From assembly GCA_016195085.1 (NCBI GenBank), contig JACQAG010000059.1, forward strand, positions 1-64,000: a stretch of 64,000 nucleotides of DNA, in the 5' to 3' direction. Both the position numbers and the translations under genes were made by a program. This DNA comes from Pseudomonadota bacterium (GTDB lineage Bacteria > Pseudomonadota > Alphaproteobacteria > SHVZ01). Shown in pieces: positions 6,197 through 41,866 of the stretch (position 1 is its first letter; every line of letters begins with the position of its first letter). The notes below the pieces were generated by a model, which was given only the letters and a program-made list of their open reading frames with translations, was not told where the DNA came from and searched no databases.

Positions 6197-6460
6197 TTAG
6201 GAGAGCGCGTTGATGTGACGGGCGAGGCGGGAGAGCTTCCGCGCAACGGTGTTGCGGTGAAGCGTGCCCTTGTTGATGCCGCCATGGAGCACGGGCTGCG
6301 CCTCTTTGAGCGCGGCAGCCGCGGCGGCCTTGTCGCCGCTGGCGACGGCCTCCTCGACTTTTCTCAGATAGCTGCGCACCCGGCTGATGCGGGTCCGGTT
6401 GATCTGGGTGCGCCGCGCAATCTTGCGCACGCGCTTTTTTGCCGAAGGGGTGTTCGCCAT
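6197..6460 (-). CDS. rpsT: 30S ribosomal protein S20
   Basis: S20 is a small basic 16S rRNA-binding protein of the 30S subunit. The chosen ATG gives 87 residues starting [17 protein letters not shown]. The family motif [16 protein letters not shown] is near the C-terminus, matching the usual 85-90 residues. An in-frame start 57 bases further upstream would add a tail unlike any S20, so it is rejected. An AGAGG Shine-Dalgarno lies just before the ATG. Its position beside dnaA is usual in alphaproteobacteria. S20 commonly represses its own translation, but no specific leader structure was recognised here. Confidence 0.97.
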
Positions 6461-6633
6461 GGTGGTCTCGCCTCTGGGAGGAGGGCGGTTATAGGCGTCG
6501 GCCCCCGCCGCAGTCAAGCGGCGATCGGGCGCTTTTGAGAGGTCTCGGCCGCACTTCTGCCGATTCGCTGCAATCGCCTGCCAGCTCCATCCACCAGGAC
6601 GCTGTTCCAGAACACTCCGAGGCGGCGGCGCTG

Positions 6634-6689
6634 GTGTCGACCGTTCCGAAGTTCGTCGGCGATGCCGACGAACTTCGGAACCGGCACAC
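6634..6689. repeat. Perfect 17-bp-arm hairpin adjoining the 119-bp element
   Basis: Arms at 6644-6660 and 6664-6680 are perfectly complementary (TTCCGAAGTTCGTCGGC) around a 3-base loop, with looser pairing outside out to GTGT/ACAC. The arm sequence is shared with the first hairpin of the adjoining 119-bp element. This looks like a partial or divergent extra unit of the same repeat family. Confidence 0.75.
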
Positions 6690-6808
6690 TAGTGTGATGA
6701 TTCCGACGTTCGTCGGCGAACTTCGGAATCTGAATCACACTGGATTCAATAGATTAGTGGCCCGCTTGTCCCTGAAGTTCGCGGACGAATTTCAGGGGCG
6801 GGACACTA
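6690..6808. repeat. 119-bp double-hairpin element, copy 1
   Basis: The element runs TAGTGTGATGATTCCGA to GGGACACTA and contains two hairpins, about 6692-6740 and 6756-6807. A second copy of exactly the same length and about 90 percent identity lies at 19359-19477. The ends form a short TAGTGT/ACACTA inverted terminus. This resembles a non-autonomous MITE or paired REP element. Its right end supplies the TAG stop codon of the secreted-protein gene ending at 6806. No transposase was found nearby. Confidence 0.75.
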
Positions 6809-7183
6809 GCGAGATTTCGGCGCGAGCGTGAACCGGACGGTGAGACCCTGCGAGTCCCGGGTGATTTCCAAGCTCAAGCGCTCCTTCTCGCGCTGGAAGC
6901 TGCGTTCGCTCAGGCGCTGCCAGCCGAGCTGGGGCAAGGTCGAGGCGTAGAAGGCGATGACCGTTTCAGGGCTGACCTGGCCCTTTGCATAGGCGACGAC
7001 GATGCGGCCCTCGGGCGCATCGAAGCTCAAGCCCGCGTCCGGGAGTGCGGCCAATCCGTCCATCAATGGCAGGTCTTCCACACCCTCGACGAATCCCGGC
7101 TCCGCCGCCACGCTAGCGGGCCAAAGCAGCAGACTCGACAAGAGCAAGGCGGACGCCAAGCTCAGAAGCGGCCCCGCTCGCAT
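6806..7183 (-). CDS. Secreted hypothetical protein downstream of mutM
   Basis: This 125-residue protein has an N-terminal signal peptide: MRAGPLLSLAS, a leucine-rich hydrophobic core, and a likely cleavage after ASVAA near residue 27. The mature part has an acidic front (EGVEDLPLMDGL) and a conserved-looking FYASTLPQLGWQR core, ending RFTLAPKSR. I recognise no named enzyme domain. The ATG lies one base after the mutM stop, so the two are co-transcribed. A longer in-frame start exists but would overlap mutM and bury the signal peptide. The last codon is TAG provided by the end of an adjoining repeat element, so the ancestral C-terminus may have been different. Confidence 0.7.
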   Translation of the reverse strand: MRAGPLLSLASALLLSSLLLWPASVAAEPGFVEGVEDLPLMDGLAALPDAGLSFDAPEGRIVVAYAKGQVSPETVIAFYASTLPQLGWQRLSERSFQREKERLSLEITRDSQGLTVRFTLAPKSR

Positions 7184-7184
7184 C

Positions 7185-8015
7185 TCAGCGCTGCCGCTTG
7201 CCGCAATAGAAGGTCGAGCGACCGGACTGCACGATCCGTCTGACGCCGACCCGGCAATTGCAGTCGGGGCAGGGCTCGCCCTCGCGGTCGTAGACCGCGA
7301 AGCGATGCTGGAAATAACCGAGCTCGCCATCCGGCCGGCGGTGGTCGCGCAAGCTGGAGCCGCCGGCCTCGATCGCCTCGGCCAGCACCGACTTGATCGC
7401 CTCCGTCAGTTTCTGGGCGCGTGCGCCCGAGACGGTTCCCGCCTTGCGCAAGGGCGAGATGCCGGCGTGAAAGAGCGCCTCGGAGACATAGATGTTGCCG
7501 AGCCCGGCCACGACGCGCTGGTCCAGGAGGGCGGCCTTGATCGGCGCCGCCTTGCCTTGAAGGCGTTTGGCGAGGCTCGGCCCATCGAAGCTGGCATCGA
7601 GCGGCTCCGGTCCGAGACCGGCGAGAAGCTTGTGGCGCCCGAGATTGGCTTCGTCGGTCAGATCCAGCATGCCGAACCGCCTGGCGTCGTTGAAGCGGAC
7701 GACATGGCCGCTGTCGTCGGCGAAGGTCACATGGTCATGGGGGTCCAGCCGGTTGGGCAATCCCGATGTCACCAGCATGCGCCCCGACATGCCGAGATGG
7801 GCGATGAGCACGCTCTGATCGTCGAACCCCATGAGGATATATTTGGCGCGGCGTCGCAGCGAGGTCACCCGGCGCCCGGTCAGCCTTTGGGCGAGATCGG
7901 GCGGCAAGGGCCAGCGCAGATCGGGCCGGCGGACCTCGACCTTGACCAGAACATGGCCGAGCAGCACGGCCGCCAGTCCCCGGCAGACGGTTTCGACTTC
8001 GGGAAGCTCAGGCAC
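7185..8015 (-). CDS. mutM: Formamidopyrimidine-DNA glycosylase (Fpg/MutM)
   Basis: MutM removes 8-oxoguanine and formamidopyrimidines, using its N-terminal proline as nucleophile. The start must be the GTG that yields (M)[13 protein letters not shown]. The ATG 183 bases upstream lies in a repeat and would bury the catalytic Pro. The 276-residue product keeps Pro2 and Glu3, and [18 protein letters not shown] of the H2TH domain. A C-terminal zinc finger follows with CPDCNCRVG (two Cys) and TFYCGKRQR. It is divergent from ubiE and runs into a small secreted-protein gene. Confidence 0.96.
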
Positions 8016-8041
8016 GTTGCGAGTGTCCGTCGCGATCGGGA

Positions 8042-8197
8042 TGCCCCCACCCCAACCCTCCCCCACCGGGGGTGGAATTTGGGAGGGGGCGGGGACCACC
8101 CCCTCCCCGACCCTCCCCGGGACGCATGGGGGAGGGAGTAGAAATGCGTTTCGACTCCCTCCCTCGCCGAAGGCGGGGGAGGGTTGGGGTGGGGGCA
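8042..8197. repeat. GC-rich element with perfect 23-bp inverted ends, copy A
   Basis: Arms at 8042-8064 and 8175-8197 are perfect reverse complements (TGCCCCCACCCCAACCCTCC and onward). The interior has further G/C runs that can pair. The same 23-bp ends bound a shorter element at 10682-10784. It occupies the divergent mutM/ubiE intergenic region, so promoters for both genes must lie within or beside it. Confidence 0.85.
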
Positions 8198-8285
8198 CGC
8201 GGCAGTTCCAAGCTCACCTGCAAAGCAACTCCTGTGGCCTGCATGTGTAGCCTAGGCCCTTGCGTTGGCGCTATGGTCCCCGCCC

Positions 8286-9050
8286 ATGGCGAAGCCCGAG
8301 CCCGGATCGGACAACGAAGCGACCGCCTCCTTCGGCTATCGCGAGGTGCCGAAGGCGGACAAGCGCGGCCTCGTGCGCGATGTCTTCGAGAGCGTCGCCG
8401 GGCGCTACGATCTGATGAACGACTTGATGAGCGCCGGCATCCATCGGCTGTGGAAGGCGGCCCTCATTCGCCTTCTCAAGCCCACGCCGAGCATGCATCT
8501 CCTCGACGTGGCCGGCGGCACCGGCGACGTGGCCCAGCGCTTCCGCCAGGCCGGCGGCGGCAGGGTGACGGTGGTCGATCTCACCCCGGAGATGCTGAGC
8601 CACGGTCGGGCCCGGGCCGTCGATGCCGGCCTCCTCGACGGCATCGACTGGGCGGCAGGCGATGCCGAGGCCTTGCCGCTGGCCGACCGCTCGGTCGATG
8701 CCTATTCGATCGCCTTCGGCTTGCGCAACGTGACCGAGCCCGAGACGGCGCTCGGCGAAGCCCACCGGGTGCTCCGGCCCGGCGGTCGTCTCGCGGTGCT
8801 GGAATTCAGCCCGGCGGTGCTGCCGGGCCTGAGCCAGGTCTATGATCTCTACTCCTTCCGCGTGCTGCCCCTCTTGGGCGGGCTCGTCGCCGGCGATGCC
8901 GGCTCCTATCGCTATCTGGCGGAGAGCATCCGCCGCTTCCCCCGACCGGAGGTCTTGGCCGAGATGATCCAACGCCAGGGCTTCGCCGGGGTGCGCTGGC
9001 AGGCGATGACCGGCGGCATCGCCGCCTTGCATTCGGGCTGGCGGGTGTGA
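8286..9050 (+). CDS. ubiE: Ubiquinone/menaquinone biosynthesis C-methyltransferase UbiE
   Basis: UbiE (COQ5) adds the C-methyl group in ubiquinone synthesis using SAM. The 254-residue product from the ATG (MAKPEPGSDNEATASFGY) has both family signatures: VFESVAGRYDLMNDLMSAG near residues 38-56 and NVTEPETALGEAHRVLRPGG further on. The SAM loop LDVAGGTGDV is intact. A TTG 21 bases upstream is a weaker start. ubiB follows 42 bases downstream on the same strand, as in many alphaproteobacteria. Length and motifs are normal. Confidence 0.96.
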   Translation: MAKPEPGSDNEATASFGYREVPKADKRGLVRDVFESVAGRYDLMNDLMSAGIHRLWKAALIRLLKPTPSMHLLDVAGGTGDVAQRFRQAGGGRVTVVDLTPEMLSHGRARAVDAGLLDGIDWAAGDAEALPLADRSVDAYSIAFGLRNVTEPETALGEAHRVLRPGGRLAVLEFSPAVLPGLSQVYDLYSFRVLPLLGGLVAGDAGSYRYLAESIRRFPRPEVLAEMIQRQGFAGVRWQAMTGGIAALHSGWRV

Positions 9051-10631: not shown

Positions 10632-10681
10632 GGCAGCACCCCTTGGAGACAGCGTCTAGATCGGTCTCTGTTCCCGTCGGA

Positions 10682-10784
10682 TGCCCCCACCCCAACCCTC
10701 CCCCAGCAATGCTGGGGGAGGGAGCCAGAGCGCATCATCACGCCCTCCCTCGCCGCTAGGCGGGGGAGGGTTGGGGTGGGGGCA
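10682..10784. repeat. GC-rich element with perfect 23-bp inverted ends, copy B
   Basis: The terminal 23 bp at 10682-10704 and 10762-10784 are the same as those of the element at 8042-8197. The interior is shorter and includes CCCCCAGCAATGCTGGGGG, a tight hairpin. It lies between the convergent ubiB and HIT genes and may end transcription from both sides. Confidence 0.85.
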
Positions 10785-10803
10785 TTCGCTGCAAGGATCC
10801 GCC

Positions 10804-17217: not shown

Positions 17218-17370
17218 TCCCTCTCCCATGGGGAGAGAGGCGGCGCATGACCAATCTATGCATGCCGGCGCCGCTTCCCCTCACCCGCGCTTCGCGCGAC
17301 CTCTCCCGCGGGGAGGGTCGGGGAGGGGGTGGTCCCCACCCCCTCCCAATGTCCACCCCCGGGGAGAGGT
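17218..17370. repeat. GC-rich hairpin repeat cluster
   Basis: Between brnA and the aldolase gene lie several pairing segments. One is CCTCTCCC/GGGGAGAG near 17220-17240. Another is GGGAGGGGGTGG (17321-17332) with CCACCCCCTCCC (17336-17347) around a 3-base loop. The latter stem recurs in shortened form at 40555-40575. No gene is supported in 17142-17394. Confidence 0.65.
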
Positions 17371-19358: not shown

Positions 19359-19477
19359 TAGTGTGATGATTCCGAAGTTCGTCGGCGAGCTTCGGAATCT
19401 GAATCACACTAGATTCGACCAATTAGTGGCCCGCTTATCCCTGAATTTCGCGGGCGAATTTCAGGGGCGGGACACTA
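19359..19477. repeat. 119-bp double-hairpin element, copy 2
   Basis: This copy matches 6690-6808 in length and in both hairpins: GTGTGATGATTCCGAAGTTC with its complement ending at 19409, and AGTGGCCCGCTTATCCCTGA with its complement ending at 19476. It lies just upstream of the 2-hydroxyacid dehydrogenase start. Pairing in the first stem is better than in copy 1. Confidence 0.75.
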
Positions 19478-34077: not shown

Positions 34078-34130
34078 CGATTGTGTCCTGGCCCAGCGTC
34101 TCGTCGGAGCTGCGCAAATGGGCGAACCCC

Positions 34131-34190
34131 GCCCGCCCGGGGGTGGACTTTGGGAGGGGGTGGGCCCCCTCCCCGACCCTCCTCGGGCGG
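34131..34190. repeat. GC-rich hairpin repeat in the infB-rbfA gap
   Basis: CCCGCCCG (34131-34138) pairs with CGGGCGGG (34183-34190). The interior holds GGGAGGGGGTGGGCCCCCTC, which can fold on itself. It is shared in style with the other G/C-run repeats in this window. Confidence 0.65.
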
Positions 34191-34240
34191 GAAGGGATTT
34201 GGGTGAGGCTATCCTAGGAGCAGACGCGGCGACCCTCGAC

Positions 34241-40476: not shown

Positions 40477-40481
40477 CAGTC

Positions 40482-40676
40482 AGCCCCTATTTCTCACCGG
40501 GATCGGGAGCAGCGTCGCGCCGCGCCAAGCCGCTCGCCGGGGGTGGGATATAGAAGGGGGTGGTCCCCACCCCCTCCTCGATCCTCCCCCAGTGCGCAGC
40601 ATTGCTCTTCGCGGCTTTCCTCGCCGGTGATCGCGTGAGCCCGTCGCTGCCCCGATCCCGGTGAGAAATAGGGGCT
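40482..40676. mobile_element. 195-bp element with 32/33-bp inverted ends between metK and trmB
   Basis: The arms at 40482-40514 and 40645-40676 are complementary over 32 bases with a single extra base. The first 20 are AGCCCCTATTTCTCACCGGG. The element starts right at the metK stop codon and ends just before the trmB start. Its interior holds a G/C-run hairpin of the kind seen elsewhere in the window (AGGGGGTGG/CCACCCCCT). It encodes no plausible protein, so it would be a non-autonomous element if mobile. Confidence 0.55.
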
Positions 40677-41866
40677 TACCGAAACGCCGCCTGCAGACCC
40701 TTCACCAGGTCGAGGCGCTCCCAGGAGAAGGCGCCATCCGGCTCGGGCTTGCGGCCGAAATGACCATAGGCGGATGTCCGCGCATAGATCGGCCGGTTGA
40801 GGCCGAGATGCTCGCGGATGCCCCGCGGGGAGAGATCCACGAGCTGCTGCAGCACCTTCGACAGCTTGGCCTCGTCCACCTGGCCGGTGCCGTGGGTGTC
40901 GACATAGACCGAGAGCGGGCGGGCGACGCCGATGGCATAGGAGAGCTGGATGGTGCAGCGCTGGGCGATGCCGGCGGCCACGACGTTCTTCGCCAGGTAG
41001 CGCGCCGCATAGGCGGCCGAGCGGTCGACCTTGGTCGGATCCTTGCCGGAAAAGGCGCCACCGCCATGGGGCGCCGCACCGCCATAGGTGTCGACGATGA
41101 TCTTGCGGCCGGTGAGGCCGGCATCCCCATCCGGCCCGCCGATGACGAAGCGGCCGGTCGGGTTCACATAGAAATGCGCCTCGTCGCACATCCAACCCTC
41201 GGGCAGGACCTTTTTCACATAGGGCCGGACGATCTCGCGCACATCGTCCTGGTCGACCTTTTCGCTGTGCTGGGTCGAGACCACGATGGCTGTGCAACCG
41301 ACGGGCTTGCCGTTGACGTAGCGAAGCGTGACCTGGCTCTTGGCGTCCGGCCCCAGCATCGGTTCCTTGCCGCTATGACGGGCCTCGGCCATGGTGCGGA
41401 GAATGTTCTGCGCGTATTGAATCGGCGCCGGCATCAGCTCCGGGGTGTCGTTGCAGGCATAGCCGAACATGATCCCCTGGTCGCCCGCGCCCTCGTCCTT
41501 ATTGCCCTTGGCGTCGACGCCCATGGCGATATCGGCCGATTGGGCGTGGAGGTAGATGGCGATTTTCGCCTTCTGCCAATGGAAACCTTTCTGCGCGTAG
41601 CCGATGTCCTTGATGGCGCGGCGGATCGGCGATTCGAGCTTCTCTTTCTTGATCTTGCCGTCCTTGGTGACGAGCGAGCGGGGTCCGCGTACCTCGCCTG
41701 CGAGCACGATGCGGTTGGTGGTGACCAAGGTCTCACAGGCGACGCGGGCAAAGGGATCCGCACCCAGGAACAGATCGACGATGGTGTCGGAAATGCGGTC
41801 GCAGACCTTGTCGGGGTGACCCTCGGCAACGGACTCGCTGGTGAAGACGTAGTCGGATTTCGCCAC
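40676..41866 (-). CDS. metK: S-adenosylmethionine synthetase
   Basis: MetK makes SAM from methionine and ATP. The 396-residue protein has [18 protein letters not shown] at the N-terminus with the catalytic His, then [12 protein letters not shown] (signature 1), [19 protein letters not shown] (signature 2) and [10 protein letters not shown]. The start is a GTG. A stem of seven pairs (41868-41874 with 41908-41914) covers the G-rich ribosome site, so translation may be controlled. It follows the PraR-type regulator, as in many alphaproteobacteria, and is upstream of trmB. Confidence 0.96.

What the first reader, a model, noticed from the sequence alone, without database searches (positions are those of the whole stretch)
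6634..6808. 119-bp double-hairpin element plus an extra hairpin
Two copies (here and at 19359-19477) have identical length, the same pair of inverted repeats and TAGTGT/ACACTA ends. The extra hairpin at 6634-6689 shares a 17-bp arm with the first unit. The arms are complementary, and substitutions in one arm are partly compensated, suggesting folding is selected or recently generated. It could be a MITE-like or REP-type unit driven in trans by an unknown transposase.
Basis: seen in the sequence. Interest (0 to 1): 0.6.

Follow-up and report, generated by a model that had tools for sequence, protein, structure and literature searches.

The report
Double-hairpin MITE with IS630-like ends
A short non-coding jumping-DNA element made of two hairpins is scattered in dozens of copies between genes of this bacterium, and longer relatives occur in many alphaproteobacteria; its ends match those of a known transposon family (IS630), which suggests how such repeats spread.

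Summary
A covariance model finds at least 95 hairpin units in 58 clusters, 35 of them clean pairs. Outer edges are sharp, mostly CTAG...CTAG, in unrelated flanks. The "extra hairpin" is a solo half of a second subfamily.

A longer relative (about 162-166 bp) with the same plan (hairpin, 13-14-nt linker, hairpin) occurs in Hyphomicrobiales, Caulobacterales and other alphaproteobacteria.

Outer ends of the long form match ends of one IS630 subgroup at 18-21 of 24 bases (best of 8,144 control 24-mers: 15). One site is empty in relatives, where two genes overlap. All 45 sites checked are intergenic, 18 flush with a stop codon.

Best reading: a non-autonomous IS630-type (Tc1/mariner) MITE, mobilised in trans, inserting at TA inside CTAG. 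No cognate transposase was found in this genome, and movement itself is inferred. Closest described kind: CIR repeats of Caulobacter. New variant of a known kind.

The parts
6690..6808 (+). 119-bp double hairpin, copy 1 (edges CTAG at 6689-6692, CTAG at 6806-6809)
6690..6742 (+). hairpin A of copy 1, outer arm TAGTGTGATGATTCCG
6743..6754 (+). 12-nt linker of copy 1
6755..6808 (+). hairpin B of copy 1
6631..6692 (+). extra hairpin: solo D-type half of a second (C-D) subfamily, sharing CTAG 6689-6692 with copy 1
   Evidence: 85% match to the second hairpin of the C-D doublet of G002
19359..19477 (+). 119-bp double hairpin, copy 2 (left edge CTAG, right edge CTAT)
19412..19423 (+). 12-nt linker of copy 2 (divergent from copy 1)
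6806..7330 (-). neighbouring ORF without a Pfam match; its TAG stop codon is formed by the right edge of copy 1
6197..6460 (-). rpsT (ribosomal protein S20), left neighbour of the extra hairpin
7185..8015 (-). formamidopyrimidine-DNA glycosylase (mutM-like)

Best explanation
The element is a non-autonomous miniature transposon (MITE) of the IS630/Tc1-mariner type. Its outer ends (TAGTGT...) are the sites that an IS630-type transposase binds and cuts; the element is excised and pasted into TA inside a CTAG, leaving TA on both sides. Each end is followed by an inverted, slightly bulged copy of itself, so the whole can fold as two hairpins joined by a linker. CTAG is scarce inside genes here and frequent at amber stop codons preceded by C, which helps to explain why copies lie between genes and often abut a stop codon that the element edge re-forms. 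Shown: copy number, sharp boundaries, CTAG context, end similarity of the long form to IS630, homology of the 119-bp form to the long form in plan and in hairpin A, one empty site in relatives. Inferred: binding and movement by an IS630 transposase, the TA duplication, any role of the hairpins in movement.
For: At least 40 places in the genome and 95 hairpin units; similarity stops at the same edges in 30 of 30 aligned copies; C before the left edge in 29/30, G after the right edge in 26/30. Long-form outer ends against IS630 ends: Bradyrhizobium CB82 21 and 20 of 24, B. guangxiense 20 and 19, B. barranii 20 (left) and 20 (right, to the right-end form), Roseomonas gilardii 18 and 21, G072 20; control maximum 15 of 24 among 8,144 TA-starting 24-mers. 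IS630 and the long form share the C|TA...TA|G context: 16 and 15 of 17 IS630, 68 and 62 of 71 doublets. Empty site at C3:83960. IS630-type transposition into TA with TA duplication is published for ISY100 (PMC2170065, abstract and passages).
Against: No IS630 gene with matching ends in the own assembly; only 9 of 18 other element-bearing genomes have any DDE_3 match. The end comparison used the long form; the 119-bp form is tied to it by plan, linker and hairpin A. No TA duplication was read directly. Within the window no copy shows recent movement (119-bp copies are 85-99% identical, median 92%).
Confidence: 0.75

Rival explanations
1. REP/REPIN-type element: hairpins moved as single-stranded DNA by a Y1 (RAYT) transposase.
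For: Palindromic, paired, intergenic, many copies.
Against: 0 of 7 genomes (own and six of the family) have a PF01797 match, while the control search rings in 5 of 14 well-known genomes. Edges are TA in CTAG and match DDE-type ends.
Confidence: 0.05
2. Fossil MITE: the family arose through IS630 but is no longer mobile in this species; copies now persist by descent and slowly lose hairpins.
For: No cognate transposase in the assembly; copies 85-99% identical, median 92%; several copies have lost part of a hairpin.
Against: Some pairs are 99.2% identical; none of the compared sites in relatives carries a copy, so the spread is not older than the split from genus g2 at those sites; the assembly is 95.9% complete and could lack an IS.
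Confidence: 0.4
3. Selected regulatory structure (RNA hairpins that protect or end transcripts, or GANTC methylation platforms), with mobility incidental.
For: Strong folds; two-sided changes in 5 of 46 pairs; 2-4 GANTC sites per copy against 0.25 expected from the window; 18 of 45 sites at a stop codon.
Against: No Rfam match at gathering score in the window; no terminator-like site at 6400-7000; stop-codon placement is about what CTAG placement gives (14 of 54 CTAG at stops); palindromes can be kept by arm-to-arm copying without selection (inference).
Confidence: 0.15

Closest known systems
CIR, Caulobacter CcrM-associated intergenic repeats (Chen and Shapiro 2003; the paper was not held, known here through section 7 of the review PMC2229807 and passages of PMC10969869)
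   Same: Alphaproteobacterial, about 110 bp, two long inverted repeats joined by a linker, intergenic, rich in GANTC
   Different: The review places GANTC at a terminal loop of one arm; here GANTC lies in arms and linker, the 4-nt loops being too short to hold it. CIR sequences could not be compared. The review says the mechanism of mobility is not ascertained; here the ends of the long form match IS630.
IS630/Tc1-mariner family insertion sequences
   Same: TA edges in CTAG; terminal repeats 18-21 of 24 identical to long-form element ends in one subgroup
   Different: The element has no gene and carries inverted copies of its ends inside
Brucella Bru-RS1/Bru-RS2 (passages of PMC2266754, PMC10800456 and PMC2267715 seen)
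   Same: Alphaproteobacterial palindromic intergenic repeats of 103-106 bp
   Different: Sequences not compared here; reported as insertion hot spots of IS711
REP/REPIN (passages of PMC3733652 seen)
   Same: Palindromic, intergenic, often paired
   Different: Units of 20-40 bp with GTAG or CGTC tags; no Y1 transposase here

Membership tests
IS630-type MITE | Terminal repeats like those of an IS630 | tested here: met
   Long form 18-21 of 24 to one IS630 subgroup, control maximum 15; the 119-bp form linked by plan and hairpin A
IS630-type MITE | TA on both edges as target duplication | tested here: inconclusive
   TA edges with C before and G after in most copies; duplication not read directly
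IS630-type MITE | Short, no coding capacity, many dispersed copies | tested here: met
   119 bp, at least 40 places
IS630-type MITE | Autonomous partner in the same genome | tested here: not met
   One DDE_3 gene only, ends differ. Not required by definition; assembly 95.9% complete
IS630-type MITE | Trans-mobilisation by the transposase | not testable with these tools
   needs an experiment
CIR repeats | Two inverted repeats joined by a linker, about 110 bp, in alphaproteobacteria | tested here: met
   119 bp, two hairpins plus 12-nt linker; the genome's class is inferred
CIR repeats | Intergenic, with GANTC sites | tested here: met
   45 of 45 sites intergenic; 2-4 GANTC per copy in 30 copies
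CIR repeats | GANTC at or in a terminal loop | tested here: not met
   Loops are 4 nt in the 119-bp form
CIR repeats | Sequence match to CIR1-4 | not testable with these tools
   Paper and C. crescentus sequences not at hand
REP/REPIN | Associated Y1 (RAYT) transposase | tested here: not met
   0 of 7 genomes

The most novel reading that the evidence does not exclude
One ancient, class-wide superfamily of double-hairpin MITEs, of which CIR and Bru-RS may be local forms, rides on IS630 transposases in alphaproteobacteria: both transposon ends are kept as cruciform-capable hairpins that preserve the end sequence by arm-to-arm copying, and the preference for CTAG makes amber stop codons safe landing sites.
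Probability: 0.3. Interest if true: 0.6.

Novelty: new variant of a known kind. Interest (0 to 1): 0.45.

Why it matters
Double-arm intergenic repeats of alphaproteobacteria have been described since 2003, and the review I could read calls their mechanism of mobility not ascertained (PMC2229807, section 7). Matching the ends of such an element to one IS630 subgroup gives a named, testable transposase, a target rule (TA in CTAG), and an explanation of why copies sit between genes and at stop codons. The copies also carry several GANTC (CcrM-type) sites into intergenic DNA, which could affect regulation.

Tried and rejected
REP/RAYT origin: rejected for lack of a Y1 transposase. Known RNA family: no Rfam match in the window at gathering score. 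Terminator: no terminator-like or promoter-like site at 6400-7000. The genome's own IS630 as mover: its ends differ. Plasmid searches with two long forms gave only partial, distant matches. Plain BLAST of the 119-bp form found nothing in 40 other genomes; the covariance model was needed. IS ends: of 21 plasmid IS630 loci, 17 gave a terminal repeat of at least 15/24; L288, L290, L298 and L299 did not and were dropped. Of 117 loci from the pattern scan, 71 doublets passed my end filter; the rest were dropped. Literature: one search returned no paper; one search listed ten papers, none of whose titles or abstract openings (all I saw of them, except passages of PMC3733652) ties such repeats to IS630; one search returned only the review PMC2229807. 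This is not proof of absence from print.

Full report
OBSERVATION. The two window copies are both 119 bp and 109/119 identical; each folds into two hairpins (A and B) separated by 12 nt. Across 30 copies 97.9% of pair cells are paired and 5 pairs show two-sided changes.

COPIES. BLAST of the 122-bp copy finds 40 places in the own genome (the tool scored only 40 of 68 candidates, so this is a lower bound). I read 14 of the stretches around apparent single units (13 scored as singles, plus C1:50615): nearly all are doublets whose second half the model missed or that lost part of a hairpin. A second subfamily (hairpins C and D, with a linker containing TATTGAA or its complement in most copies) appears there. 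The window's extra hairpin is a solo D unit; relative G002 has one C-D doublet. The G000 linker, read from B to A, is ATCTATTGAATC in many copies.

BOUNDARIES AND TARGET. In 30 copies the similarity stops at the same edges. The base before the left edge is C in 29/30 and the base after the right edge is G in 26/30; the background next to TA in the window is 25% C and 40% G. In four stretches totalling 102,603 bases, CTAG outside element edges lies between genes 33 times, at a stop codon 14 times and inside a gene 7 times of 54 (home-made gene caller, not checked against an annotation). Of 45 element sites, 45 are intergenic and 18 abut a stop codon (same caller). Target choice can therefore explain much of the placement.

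DISTRIBUTION. R1 matches 20 of 385 genomes of the class, the own genome included (17 of 276 genera, strict filters, few candidates scored per genome). Of the 80 listed titles most are alphaproteobacterial (Hyphomicrobiales, Xanthobacteraceae, Bradyrhizobium, Nitrobacter, Hyphomicrobium, Caulobacter, Phenylobacterium, Acetobacteraceae); three say only Proteobacteria and one Conexibacter. In those 80 loci, 74 of 83 matches have the partner arm nearby with at most 2 mismatches. 71 doublets that passed my filter in all 117 loci are mostly 162-166 bp, with linkers of 13-14 nt in 59 of 65 parsed. Their left and right outer ends agree with each other at 70.5% over 24 bases and still 44.8% over the next 14 (shuffled 26.5%), so the long form has extended terminal repeats. 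The Hyphomicrobium form shares hairpin A's TAGTGTGATTCAGAT with its bulge. That the window's genome is an alphaproteobacterium is inferred from these relatives; it is unnamed.

ENDS AND TRANSPOSASE. The own genome has one DDE_3 match, in an IS with ends CTAGAGC. Genome G072, which carries long doublets, has an IS630 with an end TAGTGTCCTGAACCGGAAGTTCGC (its other end is cut by the contig). tblastn on plasmids gave IS630 copies; 21 were fetched and 17 gave a usable terminal repeat, with C before it in 16 and G after it in 15. The ends of four near relatives of the G072 protein match the element ends at 18-21 of 24 (L279, L289, L293, L294); a fifth near relative (L290) gave no usable repeat. More distant IS630 match less (ISPsy32 13-14, one Streptomyces IS 3-5). 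Among 8,144 TA-starting 24-mers of control loci the maximum is 15. IS630-family transposition into TA with TA duplication was shown for ISY100 (PMC2170065, abstract and passages); CTAG preference of IS630 is known here from a title in that paper's reference list.

SYNTENY. Six genomes of the family were compared. At C3:83960 the aligned gene blocks are separated by 203, 203, 194 and 200 bases here against 64, 74, 47 and 53 in G001, G003, G002 and G004, and by 408 against 279 in G006 (coordinates as listed there). In G001, G002, G003 and G006 the RbsD-like gene's stop overlaps the next gene's start (G004 did not match my search expression, and no block pair for G005 was listed). Here the RbsD-like gene ends at the same residue position with a TAG formed by the element edge. 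R1 finds no unit in the compared stretches of relatives except the known G002 doublet elsewhere. At C48:26834 four relatives (G001, G002, G004, G006) are shorter by 233-263 bp, more than one element, so this site is supportive but not clean. At the window's first copy the five relatives with an unbroken stretch (G001-G004, G006) have an enoyl-CoA hydratase gene between the rpsT side and the mutM-like gene; in G005 it lies at a contig start beside the mutM-like gene; here that gene is on contig C3. At the second copy synteny ends on the right side.

KNOWN KINDS. The plan matches CIR repeats as reviewed in PMC2229807 (section 7 read), but the loop placement of GANTC is not met and CIR sequences were not at hand, so I do not file it as CIR. 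It is filed as an IS630-type MITE with the reservations given. Two points remain inference: that the hairpins matter for movement, and that arm-to-arm copying keeps them paired (bulged and perfect forms of hairpins A and B coexist).

Noticed in passing
window 6460-7185; L330 (G000:C3:72500-86500) 7962-8738: An enoyl-CoA hydratase gene that relatives keep between rpsT and the mutM-like gene is missing at the window's first copy and lies on contig C3 among three elements: a gene-order change at an element site.
   Followed up: partly
L164, L190, L200, L210, L211: Solo hairpins that join the left outer arm of the long element to a right-type outer arm, with the inside deleted: possible recombination products or minimal elements.
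   Followed up: no
window 8041-8200, 10678-10788, 17294-17363, 34125-34192, 40525-40590: G-rich/C-rich repeats (GGGAGGGGGTGGTCCCC type, and CCCCCACCCCAACCCTCCCCC inverted pairs) recur in the window and in relatives.
   Followed up: no
window 40479-40507 and 40651-40679: 29-nt inverted repeat, 97% complementary, arms 143 nt apart.
   Followed up: no
G004 contig ends (L060, L062, L064-L085): 24 matches to the same DDE_3 fragment sit at contig ends in G004, which suggests a multi-copy IS630 collapsed by assembly.
   Followed up: no
L198 (Conexibacter MAG): A hairpin with the same 23-base end in a MAG titled as an actinobacterium: transfer or a mis-binned contig.
   Followed up: no
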